NCBI GenBank assembly: GCA_040221055.1
Contig: JAVJVN010000001.1
Location: 1-64,000 of the forward strand
Length of the DNA stretch: 64,000 nucleotides
From: Rhodothermales bacterium
GTDB taxonomy: Bacteria; Bacteroidota; Rhodothermia; Rhodothermales; UBA10348
Direction: 5' to 3'
Under the pieces are notes generated by a model, which ran no database searches, was not told where the DNA came from, and worked only from the letters and a program-made list of their open reading frames with translations. This document shows positions 41,857 through 62,655 of this stretch, piece by piece. Made by a program: the position numbers and the translations under genes. Positions within the stretch are counted from its first letter, which is position 1; each line of letters starts with the position of its first letter.

Positions 41857-42969
41857 TTACGGTTTCATCGACATGACGTGAAGCGAATAGCTCGTACTGC
41901 GGCCGCCACCCGGATCCTGGACCAGAATGCCGCGCGAGACGAGGTCCTTGATGTCCCGGTAGGCCGTGTCCTGGGATGTCTTCGTCATCTTGGCCCATTT
42001 GGACGTGTTCAGTTGCCCGTCCATCCCCTCGAGGAGCTTGTTGAGCATGATGATTTGTCGCTCGTTCAGGTCTTCCGTTGCCCAGGTGTCCCAGAACTTC
42101 CCGCGGGTCAGCACACCCTCCAGGATCTCTTTGGAAGATGCGATGGCACGGACAGCGCACGAAAAATACCAGGAGAGATAGGCCGATACGTCGAGCGTGC
42201 CGGACTGCGTGCCCTGCAGCACCGCGTAGTAGTCGTTCCGTTCCTTCTCGATTTGATTGGACAGACTGAAGAACCGAAGGGCCGACCGTTCGAACCGGGC
42301 TTGCACCATTTCCATGATGGCCCGGGCAATGCGTCCGTTTCCATCCTCAAAAGGATGGATGGTGACGAACCACAGATGGGCGAGCGCGGCCTTGACCGGT
42401 CCCGCCTCCAATCGATCGGAATTGAACCAGGCGAGGAATCGGTCCATTTCATGATCCAATCGGCGGGACGGTGGCGCCTGGAAATGGACCGCTTCGCGTC
42501 CAACGGGCCCCGAGACCACCTGCATGAGGTCTTTTTCCGCACGGCGCCATGCGCCCGTCTGAATGGAAACCAACCCACTCCGTCCGGTCGGAAACAGCGC
42601 GCCATGCCACGCGCAAAGCCGTTCCTCGGTCAATGGATCGGCATGATTCCCCGTGGCATCCAGGATGACCTCCACGACACCATCAATGGAGCGATTGGAA
42701 GGGGGAAGTCCGGCAATATCCATACCCAACCGGCGACCGAGGGAGGACCGGACCGACAACGGATTGAAGCGTTCTCCCTCGATTTCGGACGACTTGACCA
42801 CTTCCTGGGTCAGGATGCGCAGATTGGCGTTTTCCTTCAGGGCAAAGCCCAAGCCGTCCATACGGCCAAGGAGCCAGCCCAGATCGAGATGGAATTGCTT
42901 TTCGAGGGTGGCAAACGACCCATCGTCCCACTGGAAGTCGGGCCATTCCGTCCGTTCCCATATGTACAT
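41857..42969 (-). CDS. Fic-family protein with C-terminal winged helix
   Basis: The 370-aa protein has an N-terminal Fic-associated helical domain with inhibitory motif S-x-x-x-E-G (Ser60, Glu64, Gly65), the Fic core with HPFEDGNGRIAR (catalytic His205, Arg213), and a C-terminal winged-helix segment (TSKWAKMTKTSQDTAYRDIKDL). This is class II Fic layout. Such enzymes usually transfer AMP to a target Ser/Thr/Tyr and are held off by the N-terminal Glu. The winged helix suggests DNA binding and autoregulation; a palindrome lies 36 bp upstream of the ATG. A deleted second copy is at 44369-44536. Confidence 0.9.
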   Translation of the reverse strand: MYIWERTEWPDFQWDDGSFATLEKQFHLDLGWLLGRMDGLGFALKENANLRILTQEVVKSSEIEGERFNPLSVRSSLGRRLGMDIAGLPPSNRSIDGVVEVILDATGNHADPLTEERLCAWHGALFPTGRSGLVSIQTGAWRRAEKDLMQVVSGPVGREAVHFQAPPSRRLDHEMDRFLAWFNSDRLEAGPVKAALAHLWFVTIHPFEDGNGRIARAIMEMVQARFERSALRFFSLSNQIEKERNDYYAVLQGTQSGTLDVSAYLSWYFSCAVRAIASSKEILEGVLTRGKFWDTWATEDLNERQIIMLNKLLEGMDGQLNTSKWAKMTKTSQDTAYRDIKDLVSRGILVQDPGGGRSTSYSLHVMSMKP

Positions 42970-44368: not shown

Positions 44369-44536
44369 AGCGAATAGCTCGTACTGCGGCCGCCACGCGA
44401 GACGAAGTCCTGGGATGTTTTCGTCATCTTGGCCCATTTGGACGTGTTCAGATGCCCGTCCATCTCGTCGAGGAGCTTGTTGAGCATGATGATTTGTCGC
44501 TCGTTCAGGTCTTCTGTTGCCCAGGTGTCCCAGAAC
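44369..44536 (-). pseudogene. Remnant of a second fic gene (C-terminal part)
   Basis: These bases are nearly identical to the 3' part of the intact fic gene (residues around FWDTWATEDLNERQIIMLNK to the end), but the Fic core and N terminus are gone. Two internal gaps remove parts of the winged helix: one between short GCCGC repeats and one between GTCCT repeats of the intact copy. The palindrome that precedes fic is kept 26 bp beyond the break. It encodes no working enzyme. Confidence 0.85.
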
Positions 44537-45868: not shown

Positions 45869-48514
45869 ATGACCGGCACCACCCTCTCCCACTACCGCAT
45901 TGAAGCGGAGCTCGGCCGCGGCGGCATGGGCATTGTCTATCGCGCCCGCGACACGAAACTGGACCGGGCCGTGGCCCTCAAGGTCCTGCCGGCATCGGCC
46001 CTGACGAGCGAGGACGACCGCGCCCGGTTCTACCGCGAGGCCAAGGCGGCGGCTGCGCTGAATCATCCGAACATTGCGGCCATCCACCAGATCGACGAGG
46101 CCGTTCCGGAAGATGCGCAGGGTCGGCCGACGGCGGCATCCGACGGGCCCCGGCCGTTCATCGCGATGGAGTTCATTGAGGGCGATACGCTGGAAGCGCG
46201 CATCAAGGAAGGCCCGCTGAAGATTGCCGATGCGGTGCGCCTGGCCATCCAGATTGCCAATGCGCTGCAAGCGGCCCACGCCAAGCACATTGTGCATCGT
46301 GACATCAAGAGCGCCAACATCATGCTGACGCCGGACGGGCAGGCCAAGGTGCTGGATTTCGGGCTGGCGCAGACTGCGCAGTCCACCAAGCTGACCCGCA
46401 TGGGTTCGACGCTCGGCACCATCGCCTACATGAGCCCCGAACAGGCGCGCGGCGAGGAAGTGGACGGACGCAGCGACCTCTACTCGCTCGGCACGGTCCT
46501 CTACGAAATGATTGCCGGGCGGCTGCCCTTCGGCGGGGCGTACGAGCAGGCCGTCGTCTACTCCATCCTGAACGCCGATCCCGAACCGCTCACCGCGCTC
46601 CGCACGGGCGTACCCATGGAACTGGAGCAGGTGGTGAACAAGGCGCTCCGCAAGGATGCCGGCCTGCGGTACCAGACCGCGGCCGACTTCGCGGCCGACT
46701 TGAAGGCCCTGGACCTCGCCGCGGGGTCGGGCACGTCCTTCGCCGCGAGCGCACGAACGACCGTAGCCACCTCCGCCCCGACCCCGCCCGCCCGCCGCGC
46801 CCCACACAGCACACTGTGGCCCGTCGCTACGGTGCTCGCGCTGGTCGCCGGCATGCTCGTGTCGTGGATGCTCTGGGGCCGCAGCGTTCCGCGCGATACT
46901 GTCGACATTGCCCTCGGCATTCCGGGCCTCGATGCGAAAATCAACAGCGAGCCGGCCAACGCCGCCGACCTGCTCACCATCTCGCCGGACGGCAACAAGG
47001 TCGCCTACGTCGGTTCGGGGTCCGAAGACGGGCTCTTCGTGCAAGACCTCACGACCGGCAAACCCGCCCGGCGGATTGCCACGCGGGGAGAGACGCCCGC
47101 CTTTTCACCCGATTCCCGGTTCATTGCCTTCTCTGCAGACGGAGCGGTGTACCGGGCCGGTCTCGCGGGCGATGCGCCGGAGCGCCTGGCCAGCAACGTC
47201 ACCGACATCGTGGGCCTCTCCTGGGCCGACGATGGGCATTTGTACTACGCCGCGGACTACGCTACGGGGATTTCGCGGGTAAGCGAGCTCGGGGGACCCG
47301 TCGAAACCGTGACCCAACCGGACCGGGACAGCGGTGACCTCGGGCACGTCTACCCGGACGTGCTGCCCGGCGGCAAAACCATGCTGTTCACCGCCTACGG
47401 ATTGGACGGTTATGAGCTGCGCATGATGGACCTCGCATCGGGACGCATAGACAAGCTCGGCCCGGGCGTCACCCCGCACTTCATTGCCCCCGACATCGTG
47501 GTGTTCGCGCAGGGCCCCCGGCTGTTGGCCGCCCGCCTGGACGTGGACGGGCGCCGGATGGGGCCGCCGGTCGTCATCAGCGAAAGCATCTACCACAACA
47601 TCGCGTCCTTCTCCACCAATATCGGCGTGTCCCAGCGCGGCGACGTCGTGTTCATTGACGGCAGTTCCAGCTGGAACGTCCCGCTCGAAATCCGGCGGTG
47701 GGACGGCACGCGGGAAACCGTCGCGCCCAGCATCCCGGACTTTACGCAATACTCCATGTCACGCGATGGACGATACATCGCCATGACGGGGCAGGATGCG
47801 GTGCGGGACCCCGACATCTGGGTGTACGACCTGCAGACCAAGGATACGCGCCAGATTACCGACCATCCGCTCTACGATGCGCAGCCGCTGTTTTCGAGCG
47901 ACGGACGGCTTATCTGGTTCGCCTCCGAGCGGAACGGTGCGTCCGACATCTACACCGTGGACGTGCGCACAGGCGAGGTGAAGCTGGTTTACGCGGACGA
48001 CTCGCCCAAGTATGTATCGTCCGTGTCGGCCGACAACACGTTCCTGCTGTACCTGAACGGCACCGAACTGTGGGCGCTGGATCTGGTGGGCGATGCCGGG
48101 GCCCGGCCCATCCAGAGCAACGTGGCCGATGAACGGGAAAGCGACATTTCACCCGATTCACGGTGGATTGCCTTCTCGTCCGAGACCAACGGACAGGCCG
48201 ACATCTTCGTGGTCGATTACCCCGAAACCCGTCCGCGCCAACGCATTACCGTGGGAGGCGGCCGCGCCCCCAAATGGTCCGCCGACGGCCGCTTCGTGTA
48301 CTACAAGCGCGGAACCGAACTGTACCGCGTCCCCATGAGCCCGTCCGGCAACAGCGCCGGCCCCGCCGAACGCGTCATGGAAGGCATATACGAACGCTTC
48401 GAACTCCTCCCGGACGGCTCCGGCATCCTGGTCCGCGCCACCCCACCCCGCCGCACCGTCCGTTACATCCAGGACGTGGTGGGGAGGATGGACGCCCGCC
48501 TTACCGGGCGGTAG
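45869..48514 (+). CDS. Membrane Ser/Thr protein kinase with C-terminal TolB/WD40-like propeller
   Basis: The 881-aa protein has a Hanks-type kinase domain (glycine loop GRGGMG at 16-21, Lys38 in VALKVL, HRDIKSAN with Asp145, DFG at 163-165, then MSPEQARGEEVDGRSDLYSLG), a linker, one transmembrane helix (about 315-335), and an extracytoplasmic propeller of PD40-type repeats (FSPDSRFIAFSADG, FSSDGRLIWFASERNG, ISPDSRWIAFSSETNG). A kinase inside coupled to a propeller outside suggests signal sensing. Fragments of a second copy occur at 50141 and 54466. Confidence 0.92.
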   Translation: MTGTTLSHYRIEAELGRGGMGIVYRARDTKLDRAVALKVLPASALTSEDDRARFYREAKAAAALNHPNIAAIHQIDEAVPEDAQGRPTAASDGPRPFIAMEFIEGDTLEARIKEGPLKIADAVRLAIQIANALQAAHAKHIVHRDIKSANIMLTPDGQAKVLDFGLAQTAQSTKLTRMGSTLGTIAYMSPEQARGEEVDGRSDLYSLGTVLYEMIAGRLPFGGAYEQAVVYSILNADPEPLTALRTGVPMELEQVVNKALRKDAGLRYQTAADFAADLKALDLAAGSGTSFAASARTTVATSAPTPPARRAPHSTLWPVATVLALVAGMLVSWMLWGRSVPRDTVDIALGIPGLDAKINSEPANAADLLTISPDGNKVAYVGSGSEDGLFVQDLTTGKPARRIATRGETPAFSPDSRFIAFSADGAVYRAGLAGDAPERLASNVTDIVGLSWADDGHLYYAADYATGISRVSELGGPVETVTQPDRDSGDLGHVYPDVLPGGKTMLFTAYGLDGYELRMMDLASGRIDKLGPGVTPHFIAPDIVVFAQGPRLLAARLDVDGRRMGPPVVISESIYHNIASFSTNIGVSQRGDVVFIDGSSSWNVPLEIRRWDGTRETVAPSIPDFTQYSMSRDGRYIAMTGQDAVRDPDIWVYDLQTKDTRQITDHPLYDAQPLFSSDGRLIWFASERNGASDIYTVDVRTGEVKLVYADDSPKYVSSVSADNTFLLYLNGTELWALDLVGDAGARPIQSNVADERESDISPDSRWIAFSSETNGQADIFVVDYPETRPRQRITVGGGRAPKWSADGRFVYYKRGTELYRVPMSPSGNSAGPAERVMEGIYERFELLPDGSGILVRATPPRRTVRYIQDVVGRMDARLTGR

Positions 48515-50130: not shown

Positions 50131-50140
50131 CCTCGGTTAC

Positions 50141-50408
50141 GGGCCGGCCTCGCGGGCGATGCGCCGGAGCGCCTGGCCAGCGACGTTACGTACATCGTGG
50201 TGTTCGCGCAGGGCCGACGGTCGTCATCAGCGAGAGCATCTATCACAACATCGCGTCCTTCTCCTCCAACATAGCCGTGTCCCAGCGCGGCGATGTCGTG
50301 TTCATTGACGGCAGTTCCAGCTGGAACATCCCGCGCGAAATCCGGCGGTGGGACGGCACGCGGGAGACCGTCGCCCCAGCATCCCGGGCTTTACGCAATA
50401 CTCCATGT
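50141..50408 (+). pseudogene. Remnant 1 of a second kinase-propeller gene (propeller part)
   Basis: The bases are a close relative of the intact kinase gene between 47154 and about 47763 (the propeller region including SQRGDVVFIDGSSSWN), with two deletions. One removes 288 bp, bounded in the intact copy by the 10-bp direct repeat GACATCGTGG (47204 and 47492). The other removes 49 bp, bounded by GGGCC repeats (47512 and 47561), and breaks the frame. The kinase domain is absent. Confidence 0.88.
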
Positions 50409-50695: not shown

Positions 50696-53600
50696 TTATT
50701 CTGCTTCTGCATAGGCAATAAATCTGCCAAAGAAGTTCGCCAGCTTCATCTGATCAATCGTGGTACATGTAGGACGTCTGAGCAAAGGAGATCCGACAAC
50801 AATCGCTAGTGATTGAGCACGTGATATGGCCACGTTGAGCCTGTTGATGCTTAGAAGGAAATCCATTCCTCGGGGCACGTCGTCTGCAGAGCTTGCGCAC
50901 ATGGACAGTATGACGACAGGTGCCTCTTGACCCTGGAATTTATCAACTGAGGCTACACGCGCCGTCGTACCCAAACGGGACTTAAGCAAGTTGACCTGCA
51001 TATTATATGGGGCAACGAAGAGGATATCATTCAATTCAAGCTTTCTCTGCTCGGCACCGTCCACTCCCGTTATCGACCTTCCAACCAATTCCTGGACCAG
51101 TATTTGAATAACATCAGCCTCCTCTTCACTGGACTGAGAATTGCCAGTATGTACGGACGGTATATAGACCGTGCCGCTCTCCACGGTCAATACTTCTGAG
51201 TTCAGGCCATTGTTTTTTACGACGCAGTTTATGCAATGTGGTTTGCTCGTCAGTCGACTGTCGTACACGGCATCCGAAATGAAGGTGCAAATGCCGGGGT
51301 GCAGCCGCCACGATTCGTTGAGCAGAATTCCTTTTTCTGGCGGAATGGTCGCATGCTCAGCCATGAAGTATGCCATGACCGACTGTGCGCTGTTGCCGGG
51401 ATGGGCGCCTTGGACAGGTTGCTCCAGCTGCATCTGATCGCCAATGATGACGAGATTCCTGGTTGACGGTGCCATCGCTACGAGATCCGCCATGGAAACC
51501 TGACCAGCCTCGTCTACGAACAGATAGTCAAAACAGCCCGCCCAATCGCTACGAGAAAAGGCCCACGAGGTGGCTCCTGCCAATCGCTGACCTCCCGTTG
51601 CGCCAGGTGTCCAGCTATTTGAATCCTTGACCCAGTCAATTCTTGTGTCCTTTTCAAATTCGTTGTTGTCACCGATTTTGATCCCGTGGAAATTTTGGGC
51701 TGTCTCCGCGGCGAGCTCGGATACTTTGCTCAGCAGATTGACGATGACCTTGTGGCTGTTTCCGGTGACCCCAACGCGCTTTCCTTGTGCCAGTAAGGCC
51801 AAGATGCTTCTCGCAGCGACATGTGTTTTCCCGGTCCCCGGTGGGCCTTGAATACATAGAATACTGTCGTCGAGATTCAGTACGGCACGCACTGTTCCTT
51901 GCTCAAGTGATTCCCCTTCTGTCAAAACAGGCGTCCCGAACAGCCGGTCGCGAATAGTTGGCTCGCGACGTTCGAGAAAGTGTCGGACACAGGATTGGAG
52001 TTGTCCCTCACTCTTCCATTGAAGTGCTGTCCTGAGCAGGGAATCTCGCTTCACAGCATTGGCGATCGGACCGCCTGGCACGAGATCCAACGTGTCCGGA
52101 AGAGGGCCACGACTCGCGCCGATTTTCAACGAGATCAATCCTTCATCGTGATTCATCGATTCAACGATAACACCGGTTTTGAGATCTTGCGCCAAGTAAT
52201 ATCGTCCTTCAGCACTGACCTTCGATTCTTGATTCGGATCGAAATGGTACTCATAGGATAGCGATCTTTTGATCACTTCTGGTGGCCTTTCCGTTCGCTG
52301 AAGCCCGGCCAAGCATTCAATGTCCTCAAATAACTCCTCTGTGGTCTGGCCCTCTCGGTTGAAATATTTCCACCATGAGGGTTTGTCTTCTCGTCGATGA
52401 TATTCCAATAGCCAAGCCAGCATCCGAGTGATTGAATCTTCCGGTGACGGTTCCTCCCCTTTGTCCGACATACTCTCGAGCATTTCGATCGAGAGTCTCT
52501 CTGCGTCGGATCGGGGACCGGTATCTGCAGTGAGTTCGGGATCCGAATCCGGTGAGACCCACTCAATATCGAACTCTGATTGGCGATCACGCAGCCAGTG
52601 CGCCAGCTCGAGCGTGGAGTCACAATCATCCTTGTTATACTCCCGGATTCCTCGGAGAAGCGTCGACTCTTGCCAGTCGGATGACTCGCCCGATTGTAGC
52701 CATGCATCGAATGCGACAATGGAATCCACTGCTGTATCCACGTCGCCCTCGCGCAATGGTCGATACAGTCGCTCAACATATTTGATCGAATAGGATGGCG
52801 TTCCGATGCACAGACCTTGGCTGATAACCTGGTAGAGGTCGACGAATACATTGCCCCTTAGAAGATTGTCGATCTGGTTTTCACGTGAAGCATAGGCCCC
52901 CATCAATCGCTTCAGCGCAGATTGCTCATAATGACCATAGTGGTAGATGTGCATGGATGGATCCCGATTCCAGCGTTCGTAGACCCAGTCAATAAAGTTC
53001 TCAAACGCATTCACCTCTTCCGATTTGTCACACGCCCACCAGTCCCTGAACTCTAAGGTGCCCTCCTCCACGAAAGTTGCCCCAAACAGGTATTCGAGTC
53101 CTCCCTCCATCAACGGATAACCCTCCATATCGAAATAGACGTCCAAGTCGGAGGGTGGTGGAAGGAGTTGCAGGCCTTGCCTGCCCGTAGTGTGGGCCAG
53201 GTCGTTCAACTCGAACCGGGGTTCGTGGCTTGCCCCGGTCTCTATTTGTAGGCGGGCCTGCTTGCGAAGTCTCTGAAAAACCTCATCTCCGATACCGTCG
53301 ACCCGTAGTAGTTCTGTGTGCGCCAGGTTTGTGACAGTTGAAATACCGGCATTGTAAAGGCGTTTGACCTGCGTGCTGCGAATATTCGCTACCAATGACA
53401 GGTGGTCATTCTCAGTCAGCCATTTTTCAGCACGCGCTTGCCACCGGCCATTCGATCCGAATCCAGTAGGCTCCGGGAGTTTGCCAGGATCAAAAGACGC
53501 CATGCAATCAAGGAAAGAAGCCTTGATTTCACGGTAGTAGTACAGGAAATCATGCGTCGAGAATTCTTGGTGGATCGAATTGCCTAAGATGATGCCGATG

Positions 53601-54076
53601 CGTTCTGGCAGAGATCCCGTCATTCCCTCCAACATTTCAGCGTAGCAACACAACTGAATCAGGTGCTCCGATTTGGCACTTCTAGCCAGCTTTGAATCCC
53701 AGACCTCCCACCTGTTATCCGCTCCTCGGCGCAGGAAGTCGGCAAACCCGGCGAACTGACCATGAGACAATCTCGCTTGGAATATCACGTCGGCGTCACT
53801 TTCAAGTGCTTCTCTGGTCAAGAGGTCTTGTTCCACGTCCGAGTCAGCCTGAATCCGAACAACTTTTTGGCCGCGCGACTCCATTTCTGTCAGAATGCGG
53901 GTTTCGTGCTCAACCCCACGGTCAGCGAGCATTCGCTCTGACGGTGACTTCTCATCTGGAATGAATGCATCCCTGTCGTCAAGACGATGACGATCCATGA
54001 TGGTCGCAAACTCCGACTTCATGAAAACGGCCAGGTCCGAAGGCGAGTAGAGGAGATTTGTGCCTGAATACTGCAT
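50696..54076 (-). CDS. TM0106-type RecB-like nuclease fused to DNA2/NAM7-type helicase
   Basis: The 1126-aa protein has, in order: a RecB-like PD-(D/E)xK nuclease (Asp113 in GFADFL, Asp127 and Lys129 in VWDSKLAR, then QLCCYAEML at 141-149), a helix-hairpin-helix region (about 235-275), an RNase H-like exonuclease fold (Asp316/Glu318 in YFDMEGYP, and EYNKDDC later), and a superfamily 1B helicase (GPPGTGKT near 745, VDEAGQ near 855, C-terminal VDKFQGQE and NVAISRA). This is the TM0106 architecture. Such proteins cluster in defence and repair loci; the role is not established. It lies between the two fragments of a broken kinase gene. Confidence 0.88.
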   Translation of the reverse strand: MQYSGTNLLYSPSDLAVFMKSEFATIMDRHRLDDRDAFIPDEKSPSERMLADRGVEHETRILTEMESRGQKVVRIQADSDVEQDLLTREALESDADVIFQARLSHGQFAGFADFLRRGADNRWEVWDSKLARSAKSEHLIQLCCYAEMLEGMTGSLPERIGIILGNSIHQEFSTHDFLYYYREIKASFLDCMASFDPGKLPEPTGFGSNGRWQARAEKWLTENDHLSLVANIRSTQVKRLYNAGISTVTNLAHTELLRVDGIGDEVFQRLRKQARLQIETGASHEPRFELNDLAHTTGRQGLQLLPPPSDLDVYFDMEGYPLMEGGLEYLFGATFVEEGTLEFRDWWACDKSEEVNAFENFIDWVYERWNRDPSMHIYHYGHYEQSALKRLMGAYASRENQIDNLLRGNVFVDLYQVISQGLCIGTPSYSIKYVERLYRPLREGDVDTAVDSIVAFDAWLQSGESSDWQESTLLRGIREYNKDDCDSTLELAHWLRDRQSEFDIEWVSPDSDPELTADTGPRSDAERLSIEMLESMSDKGEEPSPEDSITRMLAWLLEYHRREDKPSWWKYFNREGQTTEELFEDIECLAGLQRTERPPEVIKRSLSYEYHFDPNQESKVSAEGRYYLAQDLKTGVIVESMNHDEGLISLKIGASRGPLPDTLDLVPGGPIANAVKRDSLLRTALQWKSEGQLQSCVRHFLERREPTIRDRLFGTPVLTEGESLEQGTVRAVLNLDDSILCIQGPPGTGKTHVAARSILALLAQGKRVGVTGNSHKVIVNLLSKVSELAAETAQNFHGIKIGDNNEFEKDTRIDWVKDSNSWTPGATGGQRLAGATSWAFSRSDWAGCFDYLFVDEAGQVSMADLVAMAPSTRNLVIIGDQMQLEQPVQGAHPGNSAQSVMAYFMAEHATIPPEKGILLNESWRLHPGICTFISDAVYDSRLTSKPHCINCVVKNNGLNSEVLTVESGTVYIPSVHTGNSQSSEEEADVIQILVQELVGRSITGVDGAEQRKLELNDILFVAPYNMQVNLLKSRLGTTARVASVDKFQGQEAPVVILSMCASSADDVPRGMDFLLSINRLNVAISRAQSLAIVVGSPLLRRPTCTTIDQMKLANFFGRFIAYAEAE

Positions 54077-54465: not shown

Positions 54466-54630
54466 ATACCGTCGCCGCCGAACGCGTCATGGAAGGCATA
54501 TACGAAAGCTTCGAACTCCTACCGGACGGCTCCTGCGTCCTCATCCGCGCCACCACATCGCGCCGCACCGTCCGCTACATCCAGGACGTGATCGGGCGGA
54601 TGGAAGAGAAGTTGGTGGGGCGCCAGGCGG
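54466..54630 (+). pseudogene. Remnant 2 of the second kinase-propeller gene (3' end)
   Basis: The bases encode AAERVMEGIYESFELLPDGS, then RRTVRYIQDVIGRMEEKLVGR, clearly matching the C-terminal 50 residues of the intact kinase (48360-48514) with about one residue in five changed. Same orientation as remnant 1, 4.1 kb away. Together they show one ancestral gene split and mostly lost. Confidence 0.85.
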
Positions 54631-55086: not shown

Positions 55087-56514
55087 ATGGTTTTAGATGA
55101 CTTTCTAAGATATGCGAGGCGTAGAGACTCCACAGTCCCGGGGAGATCACCGTCGGAGGAGGCGCTAAGTGATTCTTCTCGCATCATTACGTCAAGTTTA
55201 TTCCGTCGTCTCCAAACGAAGGCGCAGGTTTTTTCCCTAGAGCAGAATGCTGCTGTTCGTTCACGATTAACTCACTCTCTTGAGGTTGCGTGCTATGGGA
55301 GGTGGATTGCACATGACATTTATCATAAACTGAATAGTGGTAAACATCTTAGTAATCCTGATTTGTATCTGCCGTTTGTATTGACCGTTGAGAACTCATG
55401 TCTGCTTCACGATATTGGCAATCCTCCGTTTGGTCATCTCGGAGAATATGCAATTCAGAGTTGGATAAAAAATAATTATTCTACATTAGAAAATGAAATT
55501 AAAAAGTTTTGTGGTACGAAAGGTGTAGGATATCTAGACTCTCTTTGCCAGTACGACGGCAATCCTCAAGGATTTCGTTTTGTAACCAAACTTCAGTGGC
55601 TTAATGACGAAAACGGGCTGAACCTTTCGTATCCTTTGCTTGCGTCTATGCTCAAATACCTCAAGTCATCACCTTCCAAACAATCTAGCGCATTCACAAG
55701 CAAAATCGGTTTTTTCTCTTCAGAGAAGGATATTGTAGAGGACGTATGGAGATTTTTCGAAATGCACATCGACAACAATGGCGAGCCCAATATGAGGTAT
55801 CCATTGACCTTCATAATGGAAGCTGCGGATGATATTTCGTATTGCGTTTCAGATATTGAGGATGCGCTGGAAAAAGGAGTACTGACCGAGAATCATATTT
55901 TTTCTAATTGTGATAGCATGCCCTCTATCGCAGTTGAGGCGTTTAGTAAATGTAACGATTTAAATGAATCGTCTGCCGCACGACACTCTAAATACATTGT
56001 ATTTAAAACCCGCATAGCGCGCGTCCTGGCAGAGAGAGCATCAGAAGTCTTTGCCGAAAACGTCGATTCAATCTGCAGTGGTCAATTTAGACAATCTTTG
56101 TTGGACTACCATTCAGACACTAAAGAAGTGGTTGAGTATCTAAAAGATATCACACGCAAGCATGTGTTTACATCACGAGAAGCGATTCATATAGAACTAT
56201 CAGGTTTCCACATGATTCACGAGATCATGGATGAGATGTTAAGTCTATGGAGATTGGGAAAGGAAGATTTTTGCAAGATTATGCCTGATTGTGATGGCAC
56301 TCCTGCTAGAAATGAACTGCAAAAAGAACGAAGGCTTGCTACTTTATTGCCGAGACGACACTGTCTTGCCTATAGGCATTTTGTTTCCGAGGAGCCCGAT
56401 ATGGAACAATATTGGAGACTTGCTCTACTGATTGATTATATATCGGGCATGACCGATAGTCATGCCTACAAGGTCTACAGAATGCTAAAAGGAACAAACG
56501 TTGGACTGGTTTAA
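55087..56514 (+). CDS. dGTP triphosphohydrolase (HD superfamily)
   Basis: The 475-aa enzyme has the dGTPase motif set: RSRLTHSLEVACYGR, the HD pair in LLHDIGNPPFGHLGE, MEAADDISYCVSDIEDAL, and the C-terminal LIDYISGMTDSHAYKVYRML. It should split dGTP into deoxyguanosine and triphosphate using divalent metal. The gene is strikingly AT-rich compared with the host-like genes of the window, so it was acquired recently. Bacterial dGTPases are established antiphage proteins that starve phage of dGTP. It is followed after 3 bp by a primase-like gene, suggesting a two-gene unit. Confidence 0.9.
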   Translation: MVLDDFLRYARRRDSTVPGRSPSEEALSDSSRIITSSLFRRLQTKAQVFSLEQNAAVRSRLTHSLEVACYGRWIAHDIYHKLNSGKHLSNPDLYLPFVLTVENSCLLHDIGNPPFGHLGEYAIQSWIKNNYSTLENEIKKFCGTKGVGYLDSLCQYDGNPQGFRFVTKLQWLNDENGLNLSYPLLASMLKYLKSSPSKQSSAFTSKIGFFSSEKDIVEDVWRFFEMHIDNNGEPNMRYPLTFIMEAADDISYCVSDIEDALEKGVLTENHIFSNCDSMPSIAVEAFSKCNDLNESSAARHSKYIVFKTRIARVLAERASEVFAENVDSICSGQFRQSLLDYHSDTKEVVEYLKDITRKHVFTSREAIHIELSGFHMIHEIMDEMLSLWRLGKEDFCKIMPDCDGTPARNELQKERRLATLLPRRHCLAYRHFVSEEPDMEQYWRLALLIDYISGMTDSHAYKVYRMLKGTNVGLV

Positions 56515-56517
56515 ACC

Positions 56518-57162
56518 ATGAATACTCAGCGATTTTCCCTTTTTTCGGATATTCCGACGGATTGCGATCTAACGCTTCTTTTAATACAGAACTTTCGCGA
56601 TATATGTTCGTCCACAGGCGTGACATCCGTTGAGTTTTCAGTGTATGAATATGAGCCTCTTACATTTGCTGAATCGCGAAACACTTATCTAACAAGCCTG
56701 TGCGAGTTTAAGGCGTGCATCCAAGGTGCGTTGTCTGATCTGCGTCCGAATCAGAATATTGCCGTTCACTCCAAAGTCCAAGTTGATGGCAAGGCCTACC
56801 ATATACCTATGATAGACTTTTCAGCTATCTCACTTCGTATTGTCGAAAGAACCATACAACATTTGTGTAATGACTTGAATTACCCGGGAATGCATGTGTA
56901 TGCTTCTGGAAGGTCATTTCATGCATATGGTACTGGATTGTTGTCTCCGGATAAGTTCGTTCAATTTATGGGTTACTTGTTATTGTGTAATTCCAGAGGT
57001 GTTTCTGATGTTATTGACTCTAGATGGATTGGTCATCGGTTGATAGGCGGATACGCAGCACTTCGACTGACTAACCAGGCAGGACATTATCTTGCGGTGC
57101 CTCAGTTTGTGACACATATTCGAAATACTTCTCACCAGATCCAGGAACTTGTAAAGGCGTAA
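56518..57162 (+). CDS. Archaeo-eukaryotic primase-like (primase 1D-like) protein
   Basis: The 214-aa product has the motif order of the archaeo-eukaryotic primase fold: hydrophobic strand plus Asp (IPMIDFS, Asp100) for motif I, SGRSFHAYG (130-138, His135) for motif II, and VIDSRW (Asp167) for motif III, then IGHRLIGGYAALRLT. This matches what I know as primase 1D-like proteins. Motif I has Ser102 where active enzymes have a second acidic residue, so it may bind nucleotides without polymerising. It is AT-rich like the dGTPase gene, 3 bp upstream, and surely cotranscribed. Assignment is by motif only. Confidence 0.65.
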   Translation: MNTQRFSLFSDIPTDCDLTLLLIQNFRDICSSTGVTSVEFSVYEYEPLTFAESRNTYLTSLCEFKACIQGALSDLRPNQNIAVHSKVQVDGKAYHIPMIDFSAISLRIVERTIQHLCNDLNYPGMHVYASGRSFHAYGTGLLSPDKFVQFMGYLLLCNSRGVSDVIDSRWIGHRLIGGYAALRLTNQAGHYLAVPQFVTHIRNTSHQIQELVKA

Positions 57163-57657: not shown

Positions 57658-60261
57658 CTATGCCTCGTACTCACCTTCTTCCTCTCGCGCCACCACGGTG
57701 TCGTAAAGGCCATAGTATGCGAGTCCTTTGTGACTTTCTATGCCGGTGTATCGAAGGGATGCGTCCTCGTAGCGGCGGAATGCGAACACGGCTGCGTTCA
57801 TCTGTTCCGTGTTGAATACGCGTAACCGAACCAGCAGGTGAAAATCCTGGACGGTCAACCCGGTCACGGTCTGGAACAGGTCCGGCTCCAGTTTGGTGAT
57901 GACATCCTGGAGTGTGTTTTCCCTGAAATCCGTCAGGTACATGAAGGCCGGAATGCGTGTAGCAAATTTGATGAGCTTCTCCTGAATCTGCTTCCGCTTG
58001 CTCTTATACTCCTTCTCCTCATCAGTGAGCTCCTTTTTCTCCTTGGGGGTAAGGTCCCGCTCCTTCGACTTGCCCTTGAGCTCCTTGATTTTCTCACTCT
58101 TGTTGATGACGGTCTCGAGGACATTGACTCCAAGGGAACGCCAACCCTCAATGCGCTCTACGGCCGCCAGGGCTTCGGGATCGTTCATGACACGCCGCAA
58201 AGTGTCGTTGTCGACGTTCACGAGCAGCGGGCTCTCCCACTTGCGAGCCAGGAGCGTAGCAGATGTGCCCGCCATCGCGATGTCTAGGATGCCACCCGCA
58301 TCGATCTGCGTCATGTTCGCGCCATCGTAGGCCAGAACGGGCAAAAATGAGATAAGGTCGCGGACAGCGGGCTCCGGATTCGATTCGCCCGGCGACAGAC
58401 GCATGCCATATTCGGAAAGCTGCAGCAGTGCCCGCGTCGGTGCAAAATCAAACACGAAGCAAACAGGCTTCAGGACCTCCTCCTCGTTCGGATTGTCACC
58501 GTTCGGATTCTTGATTGACCAGGGTGACTGCACCCTGAAGGCCGCCTGGAAATAGGTCTCAGGCGACTTCAGATTGCGCAACATGAGGATGGACGACCAC
58601 TGAGGTACGGTCACGCCCGTAGTCAATTTTCCGCACGAAAGCGTGATGGTCTTCGTATCGAACCCACTTCCGATGGCCTGGCGAACGGGAGGGAGCGCAT
58701 CAAGTCCAATTCCTGCCGATGCTCCTGCGGCGACAACCACGGTGTAGTCACGCCAGAACGTGTTGTGGCCCTCCCGGAGCAGGTTCGCCATTGCGTGGCA
58801 TGCCGCAACGTTTGGCATGAACCAGAAAGCGTGTTGCAGGTAGGGCAAAAGCCGTACGTCCGAATACGGAAAGGGCGGACGAGTGCCCGTTTTCAGGTGT
58901 TCTGCGGCGGTAGGCGCATAGTCACCGCGTATGACATCAAGCCACTTCTGCACGTCGCGCGCGTGTCGGAATTTGGCGCTCTTTCCACGCCCTGACGCCT
59001 CAAAGAAGGAATTGAGGTCGAACTCGTCGAACTCACCTGCACTGGCAATCGCCAGCAACTCATCCGGCATCTGGTACGTCAGCAACCGCAACTGTGGGAG
59101 CGCGCCGTACGGGTTTCGGTCATTGGGATGCGCGGTGGCAAACGCTTCTTTGGCACGCTGTTCATCGGTATAGGTCCAATTGAAGATCTGCTCTTCGATG
59201 AACTCCCCCGTCGAAAGCGCACGGAAGGGTGTCCCGGACAGATACAGATACGCCCGTGTTGTAATGGGCAGGAAGTCGGATTCCGGCTCTGCAAACTCGC
59301 TGAACTCCTTTTCAAAGTCCTCAATACTGGCCGTTTTCTTCTTGCGGCCGGACAGGTTCGTTCCGAATTCTTCCTGGATCTCGACACTGGCATCCTCCTC
59401 GCCCTCGAATAGCTCCTTCGCCGTGTCGCGCCACGCGCCGAAGTGGTATTCGTCAAACACAACAAGATCCCAGTTCAGCGTGTGTAGCCACTCGTTACGG
59501 GGTTTAATGTTGCCGTGCGCATCCGTGCCAAGCAAGTCCTGAAATGACCCGAAATACACGAGGGGACGAGCGGGGTCGGCGCTGCGGGGGTCCCCGTCCG
59601 TCGTACGCGAGTGGTATTGCCAGCCGTCAAAGTCAGCGTGGTTTTCGAGGTCGCTCTGCCACGCGTCGGCGACCGCCGGCTTGAACGTAACCACGAGAAT
59701 GCGCTTGGCCTTCAATGCTTTTGCAAGCTGATACGAAGTGAAGGTCTTGCCGAACCTCATTTTCGCATTCCACAGGAAGCGAGGGGATGCATCCGGGTCC
59801 TCAGCCCAGATTGAGCGAAAGTAGGAGAGTGTTTTCTCGACCGCGTCGGCCTGCTCTCGGCGCATCGGAAATGTCTCGTGGTGGGTACCCGAAAGCGGCA
59901 TGCCCGTCCGAAGCTCAACGAGAACGGTCCGCACGTCGGCGACCGTGCAACGCATCCACTCCATCATCGGATTGTCGAAGCCCTTGCGGACAAGGGCAGC
60001 CCGCACCTCGTGGTCGGTGATGGTCGAGCCGTCGTCGCGGGAGGCGGCCTCATCAAGCTCTATCCGATAATTCTTGATTGCTGCCGTCTTGAGCTGCTCC
60101 GATACGCGTCGCTTGACGTCGCGTGTGGTCTGCCCAACTTTAAGCAGCCCCGCATGTGGCTCGTCATCAATGGAATAAGCGTAGATGCGCGGTTTGGCCT
60201 TGGGTTTGGCCGCGAGGATGTCGTCGATGGAGGGCTTATTCTCCATCATCGTCGCCGGCAT
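57658..60261 (-). CDS. GIY-YIG (T5orf172-type) nuclease fused to a superfamily 2 helicase
   Basis: The 867-aa protein starts with a GIY-YIG-like domain (RIYAYSI at 25-31, LKVGQTTRDVKRRV at 40-53), then a superfamily 2 helicase: Walker A-like NAKMRFGKT (166-174), DEYH box (271-274), SGTPFRA (343-349), and the second RecA domain with SCGKLTTGVTVPQW and QAAFRVQSPW. A Lys/Glu-rich coiled coil (about 690-745) and a C-terminal domain follow. It is the probable DNA-cutting/translocating subunit of the methylase operon, overlapping the upstream methylase gene by 26 bp (or 11 bp from the ATG at 60246). Confidence 0.82.
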   Translation of the reverse strand: MPATMMENKPSIDDILAAKPKAKPRIYAYSIDDEPHAGLLKVGQTTRDVKRRVSEQLKTAAIKNYRIELDEAASRDDGSTITDHEVRAALVRKGFDNPMMEWMRCTVADVRTVLVELRTGMPLSGTHHETFPMRREQADAVEKTLSYFRSIWAEDPDASPRFLWNAKMRFGKTFTSYQLAKALKAKRILVVTFKPAVADAWQSDLENHADFDGWQYHSRTTDGDPRSADPARPLVYFGSFQDLLGTDAHGNIKPRNEWLHTLNWDLVVFDEYHFGAWRDTAKELFEGEEDASVEIQEEFGTNLSGRKKKTASIEDFEKEFSEFAEPESDFLPITTRAYLYLSGTPFRALSTGEFIEEQIFNWTYTDEQRAKEAFATAHPNDRNPYGALPQLRLLTYQMPDELLAIASAGEFDEFDLNSFFEASGRGKSAKFRHARDVQKWLDVIRGDYAPTAAEHLKTGTRPPFPYSDVRLLPYLQHAFWFMPNVAACHAMANLLREGHNTFWRDYTVVVAAGASAGIGLDALPPVRQAIGSGFDTKTITLSCGKLTTGVTVPQWSSILMLRNLKSPETYFQAAFRVQSPWSIKNPNGDNPNEEEVLKPVCFVFDFAPTRALLQLSEYGMRLSPGESNPEPAVRDLISFLPVLAYDGANMTQIDAGGILDIAMAGTSATLLARKWESPLLVNVDNDTLRRVMNDPEALAAVERIEGWRSLGVNVLETVINKSEKIKELKGKSKERDLTPKEKKELTDEEKEYKSKRKQIQEKLIKFATRIPAFMYLTDFRENTLQDVITKLEPDLFQTVTGLTVQDFHLLVRLRVFNTEQMNAAVFAFRRYEDASLRYTGIESHKGLAYYGLYDTVVAREEEGEYEA

Positions 60262-61858
60262 CGTCGGACGCGACTACTGGCCGCTCCACAATAAGGGATT
60301 CAATGAATGCGACTTGATCTGGTGTGATGCCATAACGCGCGAACAATTGTTCGTCCGTCCATCCGGTATCCATGGCGAGGTTGGGCACAAACCGGTATGA
60401 ATCACGTGTGATGTTCTGCGTTATTTTTCGCAATGACACGAGAAATCTCACAAACCGCGTGCGCATGTATCCAGCCAAGTGATGAGCTTCCTGTTCCGAT
60501 TCACATACGCCTATCACCAGATACGTCTCAGTACATGCTGACCCTGGAGCCGCTACCACTGGTTCACCAAGAATGGTCACATCATCGCGACCACTTGTGC
60601 CATGTGCTTTGACGAGCAGCACTTTCCATCGATCAATCCATTCGATGTTGTTCGTGATGGTCGATCGTTCAAGGTATGATGATTGCTGATTCCCGTATAC
60701 GAGTACCGGGTCCTTCAGTCCAGTCGGGCTCTGTCTGCCTGTCTGATTTGTGAGTCCAAAGGGTTTTCTGGCGGATACCTGATCGCCGAGGCTCGGTTCT
60801 GGCTCACCGTTTACTCTGTAGCTGGTCACCTTGTCAAGAATGCGCACGGCCTCATTTCGACGCACAAGGACATCGTATGCGTCGAGACTTCGTACCACTG
60901 GCTCGCCGATGATCTCATCTCCAATCATTGTCGTGATCTCACATCCGCCGTGATGGTCGCGTCCCCAGAGCCAGTACGAAATCCCGCCTCGTATTTTTAC
61001 ACCCGGAAAAACATCGTATAGCTGAGGAAAGTCCACCAATTTCAGAAACCGGTGATCACGTAGCATCCGGTCTCGAAAATCATCAAGCCCCTTGCCCCCT
61101 GAAAACCAGCGAGATGGAGTAATCATTACCACATACTGAGGTTCAAGCGAAATGGCTGCCTCCACAAAGAGATTATAGATTGGGGTCGCGGACGCACCAC
61201 CTCCGCCACCACCATCTCCCAATTGATACGGCGGGTTGCCAATGATCACGTCGAATTGCATATCGTCTCCAAATATTTCTGCGATGCGAGCGTTGATGTC
61301 GTCTGTGTGGATGAAGGCATAGGCATGGGATTCCATTTCGTCGCCACGATCCAGGGTTTCCCGGTTCGTACCGCAGTACCGACACCGTCCCTTCGTTGTC
61401 CACGTGTGCTCGGTCCGCTCATACCAGATGTTTCCGTTTGCACTGGTAAGGCTCCGGGCGATGGAGTGTTCACCATTGGCACGCTTGGAGCAATAGACAC
61501 TTCGGCGGGCGAGCAATGCTGTGATCTGGGTGATTCCTATCCCGAATACCTGTCTGGTCAGAATGTGGTCCACGCGTGAGTCCAAGTCCGGCATCTGGTC
61601 CGCCAAGCCCTCCGTCAACCGGCGGGTAATTTCCCGGAGGAAGACACCGGATTTCGCTACGGGATCGAGGAAACGCACATCGGGGTTCGCCCAAAGGCTT
61701 GCCCCGTTGTGGTCCGCCGACCACGCATCGGCCAGTGTGTCCAGCATCCGGTTGGCGAACTCAGGTGGCGTGAACACTTCGTCGTTGGACAGATTCGCTA
61801 TGCACGAAAGCACATCCGGGTTACGTCCTCGGAGTTCAAAAGGGGCTTTCTCACTCAT
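60236..61858 (-). CDS. Eco57I-like N6-adenine DNA methyltransferase
   Basis: The 540-aa protein has an N-terminal helix with NDEVFTPPEFANRMLD, AdoMet motif I LDPVAKSGVFL (64-74), and catalytic motif IV NPPY (208-211) followed by a Gly-rich run. A CxxC (CRYCG, 159-163) may bind zinc with the upstream Cys. The C-terminal half should recognise target DNA. Start ATG overlaps the stop of the upstream methylase gene (ATGA). It modifies adenine in the recognition site and may be a restriction-linked specificity subunit. Confidence 0.85.
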   Translation of the reverse strand: MSEKAPFELRGRNPDVLSCIANLSNDEVFTPPEFANRMLDTLADAWSADHNGASLWANPDVRFLDPVAKSGVFLREITRRLTEGLADQMPDLDSRVDHILTRQVFGIGITQITALLARRSVYCSKRANGEHSIARSLTSANGNIWYERTEHTWTTKGRCRYCGTNRETLDRGDEMESHAYAFIHTDDINARIAEIFGDDMQFDVIIGNPPYQLGDGGGGGGASATPIYNLFVEAAISLEPQYVVMITPSRWFSGGKGLDDFRDRMLRDHRFLKLVDFPQLYDVFPGVKIRGGISYWLWGRDHHGGCEITTMIGDEIIGEPVVRSLDAYDVLVRRNEAVRILDKVTSYRVNGEPEPSLGDQVSARKPFGLTNQTGRQSPTGLKDPVLVYGNQQSSYLERSTITNNIEWIDRWKVLLVKAHGTSGRDDVTILGEPVVAAPGSACTETYLVIGVCESEQEAHHLAGYMRTRFVRFLVSLRKITQNITRDSYRFVPNLAMDTGWTDEQLFARYGITPDQVAFIESLIVERPVVASDDAGDDDGE

Positions 61859-62655
61859 TTGGAATCCTCTGAGAGAGCGGCACCTACCGTGGCGAGGTCA
61901 CGAATCGCCATTGGCTCATACGAGCGAATGGGCGTGAACAATTCATGTTTACCCACATGGGCGAAGAGCGAATCTTCTGCGCTGAATGCTGCTGACTGCG
62001 CCAAGACCTCGAATTTGAAGTCGCGCCGCTGAAACTTGCCTCGGCCCAAGTAGCCCCATTCGGCAAAAGAGATCGGCTTGCCGGTGTTCGTTTTCATGGC
62101 GAGCGCATCGCCGTGAATCAGGTTCACCGCGAGAACATTAGCCGCTGCACGGTAAAGCTCGTCCGATGCTTCCAGGAGGAACGCTTCTGCGAACGTGTCC
62201 AAGAGGTTTTCCTTACACTCCGCAACGTTGTCGGCCAGAATTTCGATTCCATACAGGCTCATGATCGCCAGTAGTGCAAAATGCTGCCGTTCGAACTCCG
62301 ATCGCCCATACTTAAGCTCCACTGCAGCGAGTTTCCGACGCAGGGCGGCCACGAGGAAGTTACCACTCCCACAGGCTGGTTCAAGAAAGCGAGAATCAAT
62401 GCGCTCCGTCTCCGACCGTACCAGATCGAGCATTGCCTCCACCATCCACGCTGGCGTGAATACCTCACCGTGGTCGGCAACGCGCTGCTTTGATTTGACG
62501 AGGCTCAAGGACTCAACTATTACGTTTTGCGTCAACGATATCTGCACAACAGGCGACAACTGGCTGCCAGCACAGCCAGTCCTCCGAACACTGAAAGGTA
62601 GTTGCGCCAGGCTGTAAATGCCCACGAGGGGATTCACGTCAACCGTTCCGGACAA
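61855..62655 (-). CDS. N6-adenine DNA methylase-like protein, first gene of the operon
   Basis: The product (up to 266 aa) has SKQRVADHGEVFTPAWMVEAML and the AdoMet motif FLEPACGSGNFLVAAL, followed by a long region ending FTPIRSYEPMAI. No NPPY-type motif IV is present, so it may be a non-catalytic or split methylase working with the next protein, which has NPPY. The 5' end is uncertain: the long frame starts at TTG 62655, and the first 35 residues are not family-like. GTG or TTG codons near 62532-62547 are better candidates. No ATG occurs before residue 70. Confidence 0.75.
   Translation of the reverse strand: MSGTVDVNPLVGIYSLAQLPFSVRRTGCAGSQLSPVVQISLTQNVIVESLSLVKSKQRVADHGEVFTPAWMVEAMLDLVRSETERIDSRFLEPACGSGNFLVAALRRKLAAVELKYGRSEFERQHFALLAIMSLYGIEILADNVAECKENLLDTFAEAFLLEASDELYRAAANVLAVNLIHGDALAMKTNTGKPISFAEWGYLGRGKFQRRDFKFEVLAQSAAFSAEDSLFAHVGKHELFTPIRSYEPMAIRDLATVGAALSEDSK

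What the first reader, a model, noticed from the sequence alone, without database searches (positions are those of the whole stretch)
55087..57162. dGTPase plus archaeo-eukaryotic primase-like protein: possible undescribed two-gene defence unit
Two AT-rich genes, 3 bp apart, encode an HD-type dGTPase and a 214-aa protein with primase-fold motifs (Asp100, SGRSFH, Asp167). Their base composition differs sharply from the host-like genes, and they lie in a stretch full of nuclease, methylase and broken genes. dGTPase alone is a known antiphage enzyme. A primase-like partner could sense phage replication intermediates, regulate the dGTPase, or synthesise a nucleotide signal. I do not know a described system with this pair.
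Basis: partly seen in the sequence, partly recalled or inferred. Interest (0 to 1): 0.8.

Follow-up and report, generated by a model that had tools for sequence, protein, structure and literature searches.

The report
dGTP-destroying enzyme with primase-shaped partner gene
Two neighbouring bacterial genes, one for an enzyme that destroys the DNA building block dGTP and one for a small protein shaped like a DNA primase, travel together as a unit through several bacterial phyla, usually among antivirus genes, and probably form a virus-defence pair in which the second protein controls the first.

Summary
55087-56514 encodes a dGTPase with all HD catalytic residues; 56518-57162, 3 bp downstream, encodes a 214-aa protein of Pfam PF24387 (AEP-like, E 5e-36) whose predicted fold matches primases (best RepB', Z 11). 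The pair is no accident: in all 12 loci where the upstream side is visible (Bacteroidota, Ignavibacteria, Gamma- and Betaproteobacteria, Acidobacteria), the primase-like gene directly follows a dGTPase, usually overlapping it. These dGTPases form one clade (99/97), sister to proteobacterial Dgt and separate from Clover CloA. The unit is rare, horizontally acquired (GC 42% against 60%) and mostly lies among restriction or abortive-infection genes. Closest known system: Clover (CloA dGTPase plus the nucleotidyltransferase CloB, which makes an inhibitory dinucleotide). Here a different fold takes CloB's place, and CloA's signal pockets are not conserved. The primase-like protein keeps the nucleotide-binding residues (Ser133, His135, Arg183) and two metal ligands (Asp100, Asp167) but lacks the second motif-A acid in every dGTPase-paired copy. 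I therefore favour a nucleotide-binding negative regulator over an active primase; a signal synthase is the main rival. Defence function is inferred, not shown. A 2023 survey that may mention this domain could not be read.

The parts
55087..56514 (+). dGTPase (HD-domain dNTP triphosphohydrolase, Dgt-like, 475 aa); predicted effector
   Evidence: TIGR01353 309 bits, PRK04926 391 bits (cut-off 405), PADLOC dGTPase 3.2e-64, 7w1f 1.5e-63; tree clade
55273..55275 (+). codon of His63 (HD metal ligand)
   Evidence: conserved in alignment A5
55408..55413 (+). codons of His108-Asp109 (HD motif)
   Evidence: conserved in A5; equals CloA H117/D118
55435..55446 (+). codons 117-120, His117...Glu120 (catalytic dyad, CloA H126/E129)
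   Evidence: alignment with CloA and A5
56518..57162 (+). AEP-like protein (Pfam PF24387, 214 aa), primase fold; predicted regulator of the dGTPase
   Evidence: Pfam 5.3e-36; AF2 pLDDT 81, pTM 0.77; RepB' primase Z 11.0, rmsd 3.1 over 159 aa
56815..56817 (+). codon of Asp100, motif A (IPMIDFS; only one acid, second position is Ser102)
   Evidence: invariant; +2 position not acidic in any dGTPase-paired copy
56908..56922 (+). codons 131-135, GRSFH, motif B (nucleotide-binding sxH)
   Evidence: Gly131, Ser133 and His135 invariant in A4
57016..57018 (+). codon of Asp167, motif C (hDxRWhGH)
   Evidence: invariant
57064..57066 (+). codon of Arg183 (LR after motif C; counterpart of PrimPol Lys297)
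   Evidence: invariant in A4; counterpart by spacing, PMC10778844

Best explanation
A two-gene antiviral unit. The first protein is an active dGTPase that, when unleashed during phage infection, empties the dGTP pool so that phage DNA cannot be copied. The second is a primase-fold protein that has probably lost ordinary primase catalysis but still binds a metal-bound nucleotide (and possibly single-stranded DNA). It is made together with the dGTPase through overlapping genes and restrains it in healthy cells. Infection changes what the primase-like pocket holds (dNTP pool, replication DNA or a phage protein) and the restraint is lifted. Shown here: the genes, the pairing, the predicted fold, which residues are conserved, the defence-rich surroundings and the horizontal spread. 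Inferred: dGTPase activity, defence, negative regulation, the trigger.
For: Pairing in 12 of 12 testable loci with overlaps of 1-11 bp or a 3-bp gap; correlated divergence of the partners (Mantel r 0.85, p 1e-4); paired dGTPases form one clade, 99/97; of 30 dGTPases with neighbours read in the phylum sample only the window's and Stygiobacter's have the partner. HD residues conserved. Primase fold from two models. Asp100, Ser133, His135, Asp167 and Arg183 kept; the motif-A second acid and the motif-B lysine are absent; in human PrimPol the counterparts are a catalytic metal ligand and the lysine that positions it (PMC10778844). Defence neighbours: RM genes in the window; AbiH, Dcm and a type II REase (L015); integrase, QueC and D12 methylase (L013; same gene order in L014); Vsr, Dcm and UvrD (L017); Eco57I methylase (L018); type III REase (L009). 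Absent from 244 other genomes of its class, including three of its genus. Negative control of a toxic dGTPase by the neighbouring gene has precedent in Clover (PMC12265719). Two contigs classed as viral carry the primase-like gene with no dGTPase found, one near a Lar-like restriction-alleviation gene; in a Pantoea plasmid the dGTPase has an in-frame stop while the partner is intact. Both fit a partner that tames the dGTPase.
Against: No phage or toxicity experiment. Vibrio, Pantoea and Stygiobacter copies have weaker or no defence neighbours. Loss of one carboxylate does not prove loss of catalysis. Conserved pairing would also fit an activator. The two viral contigs gave no Terminase_6N hit, so their viral nature is not verified. 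No complex could be predicted.
Confidence: 0.45

Rival explanations
1. Clover analogue with signal synthesis. The primase-like protein joins nucleotides without a template and makes a short linear 5'-triphosphate oligonucleotide that binds and inhibits the dGTPase, as CloB's p3diT does for CloA.
For: The same two-gene logic as Clover, and dGTPases with a nucleotidyltransferase-like second gene occur in the same phylum sample. The first product of a primase is a dinucleotide with an intact 5' triphosphate (PMC11009956), the same kind of molecule as p3diT. Asp100, Asp167, Ser133 and His135 are invariant.
Against: The second motif-A acid is missing in all paired copies. CloA's p3diT contact R34 is Ser and R314 is Lys, and the dTTP contacts D61 and K256 are changed. 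No accessory domain such as PriL or the helix bundle, which primases use for the first dinucleotide.
Confidence: 0.28
2. The primase-like protein is a sensor and activator. It binds phage replication DNA (ssDNA, primer ends) and switches the dGTPase on.
For: RepB' with initiator DNA is the best structural match; the paired dGTPases are sister to E. coli Dgt, which is reported to bind ssDNA (recalled, not tested here).
Against: Solitary copies in contigs classed as viral make little sense for an activator; host DNA replication also exposes ssDNA.
Confidence: 0.15
3. A nucleotide-pool or DNA-repair housekeeping pair with no role in defence.
For: Dgt has a housekeeping role in E. coli; no phage experiment exists; some loci (Pantoea, Stygiobacter) lack clear defence neighbours.
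Against: Rare and patchy: 2 of 394 Bacteroidota genomes, 1 of 369 gammaproteobacterial genomes, 1 of 245 in the class; foreign base composition; defence and mobile-element neighbours in most loci.
Confidence: 0.1

Closest known systems
Clover (CloA dGTPase + CloB nucleotidyltransferase; PMC12265719)
   Same: Two adjacent genes: an HD dGTPase effector (chain 9p8t, which I take to be CloA from its residue numbering, matches at 2e-48), then a small protein with a nucleotide-polymerising fold; presumed need to restrain a toxic dGTPase.
   Different: The partner is a primase (AEP) fold, not a Pol-beta nucleotidyltransferase; the dGTPase belongs to the Dgt lineage, not the CloA lineage; p3diT and dTTP pocket residues are not conserved.
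E. coli and Pseudomonas Dgt (4x9e, 7w1f; PRK04926)
   Same: Closest solved relatives of the dGTPase; same catalytic residues; sister clade.
   Different: The enterobacterial dgt genes read here are single genes next to mtn and degP with no primase-like partner; PRK04926 just misses its cut-off (391 against 405 bits).
Pfam PF24387 AEP-like and AEP primases (RepB', PriS, PrimPol, LigD PolDom)
   Same: Family hit 5e-36; same fold (RepB' Z 11.0, 3.1 A over 159 aa); motif B and motif C kept.
   Different: Single-domain protein without the second motif-A acid, the helicase, Zn or PriL modules, and without a replication context.
Stand-alone antiphage dGTPases (PADLOC dGTPase, NF041026)
   Same: PADLOC model 3e-64; same proposed effector chemistry.
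   Different: NF041026 far below its cut-off (184 against 400); those systems are single genes.

Membership tests
Clover | HD dNTPase with intact catalytic residues as first gene | tested here: met
   H63, H108, D109, H117, E120 conserved
Clover | Partner is a Pol-beta nucleotidyltransferase with [DE]h[DE]..h[DE]h | tested here: not met
   Partner is PF24387 with a primase fold
Clover | p3diT pocket (R29, R34, R38, R314 of CloA) | tested here: not met
   R34 is Ser in all paired dGTPases, R314 is Lys, R38 kept; R29 lies outside the CloA fragment at hand
Clover | dTTP activator pocket (R47, D61, K256, Y452 of CloA) | tested here: not met
   R47 kept; D61 is Ala, Ser or Pro; K256 is Glu; Y452 is Tyr, Phe or His
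Clover | Synthesis of p3diT | not testable with these tools
   needs LC-MS
Archaeo-eukaryotic primase superfamily | AEP catalytic-core fold | tested here: met
   Two models, best rows nearly all AEPs, best Z 10-11
Archaeo-eukaryotic primase superfamily | Motif A DxD/E | tested here: not met
   One Asp only; +2 is S, L, G, Y, A, V, T, I or N in the close group; only the archaeal outgroup L020 has Glu
Archaeo-eukaryotic primase superfamily | Motif B sxH and motif C acid | tested here: met
   Ser133, His135, Asp167 invariant
Archaeo-eukaryotic primase superfamily | Primer or nucleotide synthesis | not testable with these tools
   needs an enzyme assay
Pfam PF24387 (AEP-like) | Score above the gathering cut-off | tested here: met
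   123.8 bits against 27
Antiphage dGTPase NF041026 | Score above the curated cut-off of 400 bits | tested here: not met
   183.6 bits
Toxin-antitoxin pair | Tightly linked gene pair | tested here: met
   overlaps of 1-11 bp, or a 3-bp gap in the window
Toxin-antitoxin pair | First protein toxic alone, second neutralises it | not testable with these tools
   needs expression in a laboratory strain

The most novel reading that the evidence does not exclude
A second, independently evolved class of Clover-like immunity in which a primase-fold protein, not a nucleotidyltransferase, makes or holds the nucleotide that keeps a Dgt-lineage dGTPase switched off, with phages carrying the primase-like gene alone as an antidote.
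Probability: 0.4. Interest if true: 0.82.

Novelty: new variant of a known kind. Interest (0 to 1): 0.63.

Why it matters
If it works as proposed, dGTP-destroying immune enzymes have at least twice, independently, taken on a nucleotide-polymerising fold as a partner (Pol-beta nucleotidyltransferase in Clover, primase fold here). That would point to a general design rule: nucleotide-pool effectors are kept in check by nucleotide-handling partners. It would also give a primase fold a role as immune regulator, and it makes directly testable how dGTPases of the Dgt lineage can be controlled. Solitary copies in contigs classed as viral suggest a candidate counter-defence.

Tried and rejected
Literature: no paper in the held library describes a dGTPase-primase pair. 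The 2023 NAR survey of nucleotide-targeting effectors, which I take to be the 2023 work that Clover's authors cite for the dNTPase-NTase pair, is not held. PF24390, three accessions from PF24387, is PRTase-CE, a name I recall from that survey, so the AEP-like domain may already be mentioned there. Sequence search of the AEP-like protein or its alignment against solved structures: no real hit. INPHARED phages: no match. A fused dGTPase-AEP model read through the stop was prepared, but the alignment misplaced the AEP rows over the dGTPase, so it was not folded. Promoters and terminators near chance. No tRNA in the window. The idea that the pair is a Clover member was rejected on partner fold, tree and pocket residues. 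The idea that the primase-like protein is an ordinary primase was rejected because motif A is incomplete. The nucleotidyltransferase-like partners of other dGTPases had no sequence match in solved structures; their assignment rests on motif reading.

Full report
OBSERVATION. Window 55087-56514 and 56518-57162 (+) are two complete ORFs of 475 and 214 aa, 3 bp apart. The first is a dGTPase (TIGR01353 309 bits; PADLOC dGTPase 3e-64; Dgt 7w1f 1.5e-63; 9p8t, taken to be CloA, 1.8e-48). The second matches Pfam PF24387, 'Archaeo-eukaryotic primase 1D-like', at 5e-36. GC is 42% against 59.5% for the window.

THE PAIR IS CONSERVED. A scan of 84,980 species' genomes with a three-sequence profile returned 14 loci; one more paired genome of the same phylum (the same contig as L016) and the Pantoea plasmid (the same as L012) fall among them. 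With the window this gives 12 distinct loci of the close group whose upstream side is visible: window, Stygiobacter, Vibrio aestuarianus, V. owensii, Sedimenticola, Aliidiomarina, a betaproteobacterium, Pantoea, two Acinetobacter, a Bacteroidales MAG and an Acidobacteria MAG. In all 12 a dGTPase lies directly upstream. In the eleven loci measured the genes overlap by 1-11 bp, or are 3 bp apart in the window; in Pantoea they are also adjacent or overlap, depending on the start codon chosen. One further close member (Niastella, L017) lies at a contig end. Distant members lack a dGTPase: Mycolicibacterium plasmid (SIR2 - DprA - phosphoribosyltransferase - AEP-like), a planctomycete and a Pacearchaeota contig. 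Partner distance matrices correlate (Mantel r 0.85, p 1e-4), though shared ancestry adds to that figure.

CONTROL FROM THE OTHER SIDE. In 394 Bacteroidota genomes, 89 have a dGTPase at E 1e-20. Of the 30 loci inspected only the two best, the window and Stygiobacter, have the partner. A tree of 46 dGTPases puts the 12 AEP-paired ones in one clade (99/97), sister (100/100) to E. coli, Pseudomonas, Pseudoalteromonas and Arcobacter Dgt. CloA and dGTPases followed by a nucleotidyltransferase-like gene lie elsewhere. The partner was therefore most likely acquired independently of Clover.

FOLD. AlphaFold2 on a 16-row alignment of the window protein: pLDDT 81, pTM 0.77. On the Sedimenticola homologue: pLDDT 91.5, pTM 0.88. 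Both are closest to RepB' primase (Z 11.0 and 10.1, rmsd 3.1-3.5 over 153-159 residues), followed by S-2L PrimPol, PriS, human primase, LigD PolDom and PrimPol. Foldseek E-values are modest (one below 1e-3, none), but nearly all the top rows are primases, and the Pfam hit is independent support.

ACTIVE SITE. AEPs carry motif A DxD/E, motif B sxH and motif C D/E; in human PrimPol these are Asp114/Glu116, Ser167/His169 and Asp280, with Lys165 and Lys297 helping (PMC10778844). The family here has invariant Asp100, Ser133, His135, Asp167 and Arg183. The Glu116 position is never acidic in the paired proteins, and the Lys165 position is Gly. Only the archaeal outgroup L020 has Glu there. So nucleotide binding is probably kept and ordinary two-metal synthesis is doubtful. 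This is inference from sequence.

THE dGTPase. The HD residues and the His117/Glu120 dyad are conserved across the paired set. Mapping onto CloA (PMC12265719): p3diT contact R34 is Ser and R314 is Lys; dTTP contacts D61 and K256 are replaced; R47 and an aromatic residue at Y452 remain. A Clover-type dTTP and p3diT switch is therefore not predicted here.

CONTEXT. Window: RecB-type nuclease/AAA_12 helicase upstream, ResIII protein and Eco57I/N6 methylases downstream. L015: AbiH, C5 methylase, HATPase-type REase. L013: tyrosine integrase immediately upstream, then PfkB/nucleoside deoxyribosyltransferase, QueC and D12 methylase downstream; L014 has the same gene order. L017: Vsr, C5 methylase, UvrD helicase. 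L018: Eco57I-type methylase. L009: type III REase-like. Vibrio: HTH gene overlapping the dGTPase and a divergent ResIII helicase. L010: a transposase-like ORF upstream. Pantoea and Stygiobacter: ordinary neighbours. The unit is absent from the other 244 genomes of its class and found in 1 of 369 gammaproteobacterial genomes, the centre genome itself: rare, accessory, mobile.

MECHANISM. dGTP removal as the effector step is strongly implied by family. Since CloA is toxic without CloB (PMC12265719), the second gene most likely restrains the first. Three observations fit restraint: an intact partner beside a dGTPase with an in-frame stop in Pantoea, solitary copies in two contigs classed as viral with no dGTPase found, and a Lar-like restriction-alleviation gene close to one of them. 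The restraint could be direct binding by a nucleotide-loaded pocket (favoured, because of the incomplete motif A) or synthesis of a small inhibitory nucleotide. Primases do make 5'-triphosphate dinucleotides (PMC11009956), the same kind of molecule as p3diT.

NOVELTY. No paper in the held library describes the pair. The nearest system is Clover, which it resembles in logic but not in partner, lineage or pocket. PF24387 exists in Pfam, and the 2023 NAR survey likely to mention it could not be read, so prior mention of the association is possible. Filed as a new variant of a known kind, interest 0.63.

Noticed in passing
L026:2783-3484, L027:783-1511, L029:777-1511, L036:591-1322 (and more divergent L031:758-1486); L056:3850-4629: Bacteroidota dGTPases, and one on a Phaeobacter plasmid, are followed by a 230-260 aa gene with CCA-adding-like motifs (FSGVIRN...RDLDFVV or FGGALRD...SDVDTVV): probably Clover or a Clover-like system, here in a phylum not named in the passages of the Clover paper that I read, with no Pfam family over its cut-off.
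   Followed up: partly
L021:5926-6498 and L022:601-1230: Two contigs classed as viral (181 kb and 163 kb) carry the AEP-like gene with no dGTPase found; in L022 a Lar-like restriction-alleviation gene lies close by. Candidate counter-defence.
   Followed up: partly
L005:2452-6396 (Mycolicibacterium chubuense pMYCCH.01): A distant AEP-like protein sits in a different set: SIR2 - DprA - phosphoribosyltransferase-like - AEP-like, next to an integrase and an antitoxin; another likely conflict system.
   Followed up: no
window 45869-48514, 50140-50408, 54469-54604: The 'broken genes' are two fragments (89-97% identity) of a second copy of the intact kinase/TolB-like gene at 45869-48514, now separated by the RecB-nuclease/helicase gene 50696-54076.
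   Followed up: partly
window 57658-62655 (-): A ResIII protein, an Eco57I methylase and an N6 methylase piece match parts of type IIG REase-MTase models: a type IIG-like system split over three genes.
   Followed up: partly
window 41882-42097 and 44369-44536: A second duplication, 96-97% identical, about 2.5 kb apart, upstream of the island.
   Followed up: no
L004:4379-5908 (Pantoea sp. SOD02 pSOD02): The dGTPase is interrupted by one in-frame stop, annotated as two genes, while the AEP-like partner is intact.
   Followed up: partly
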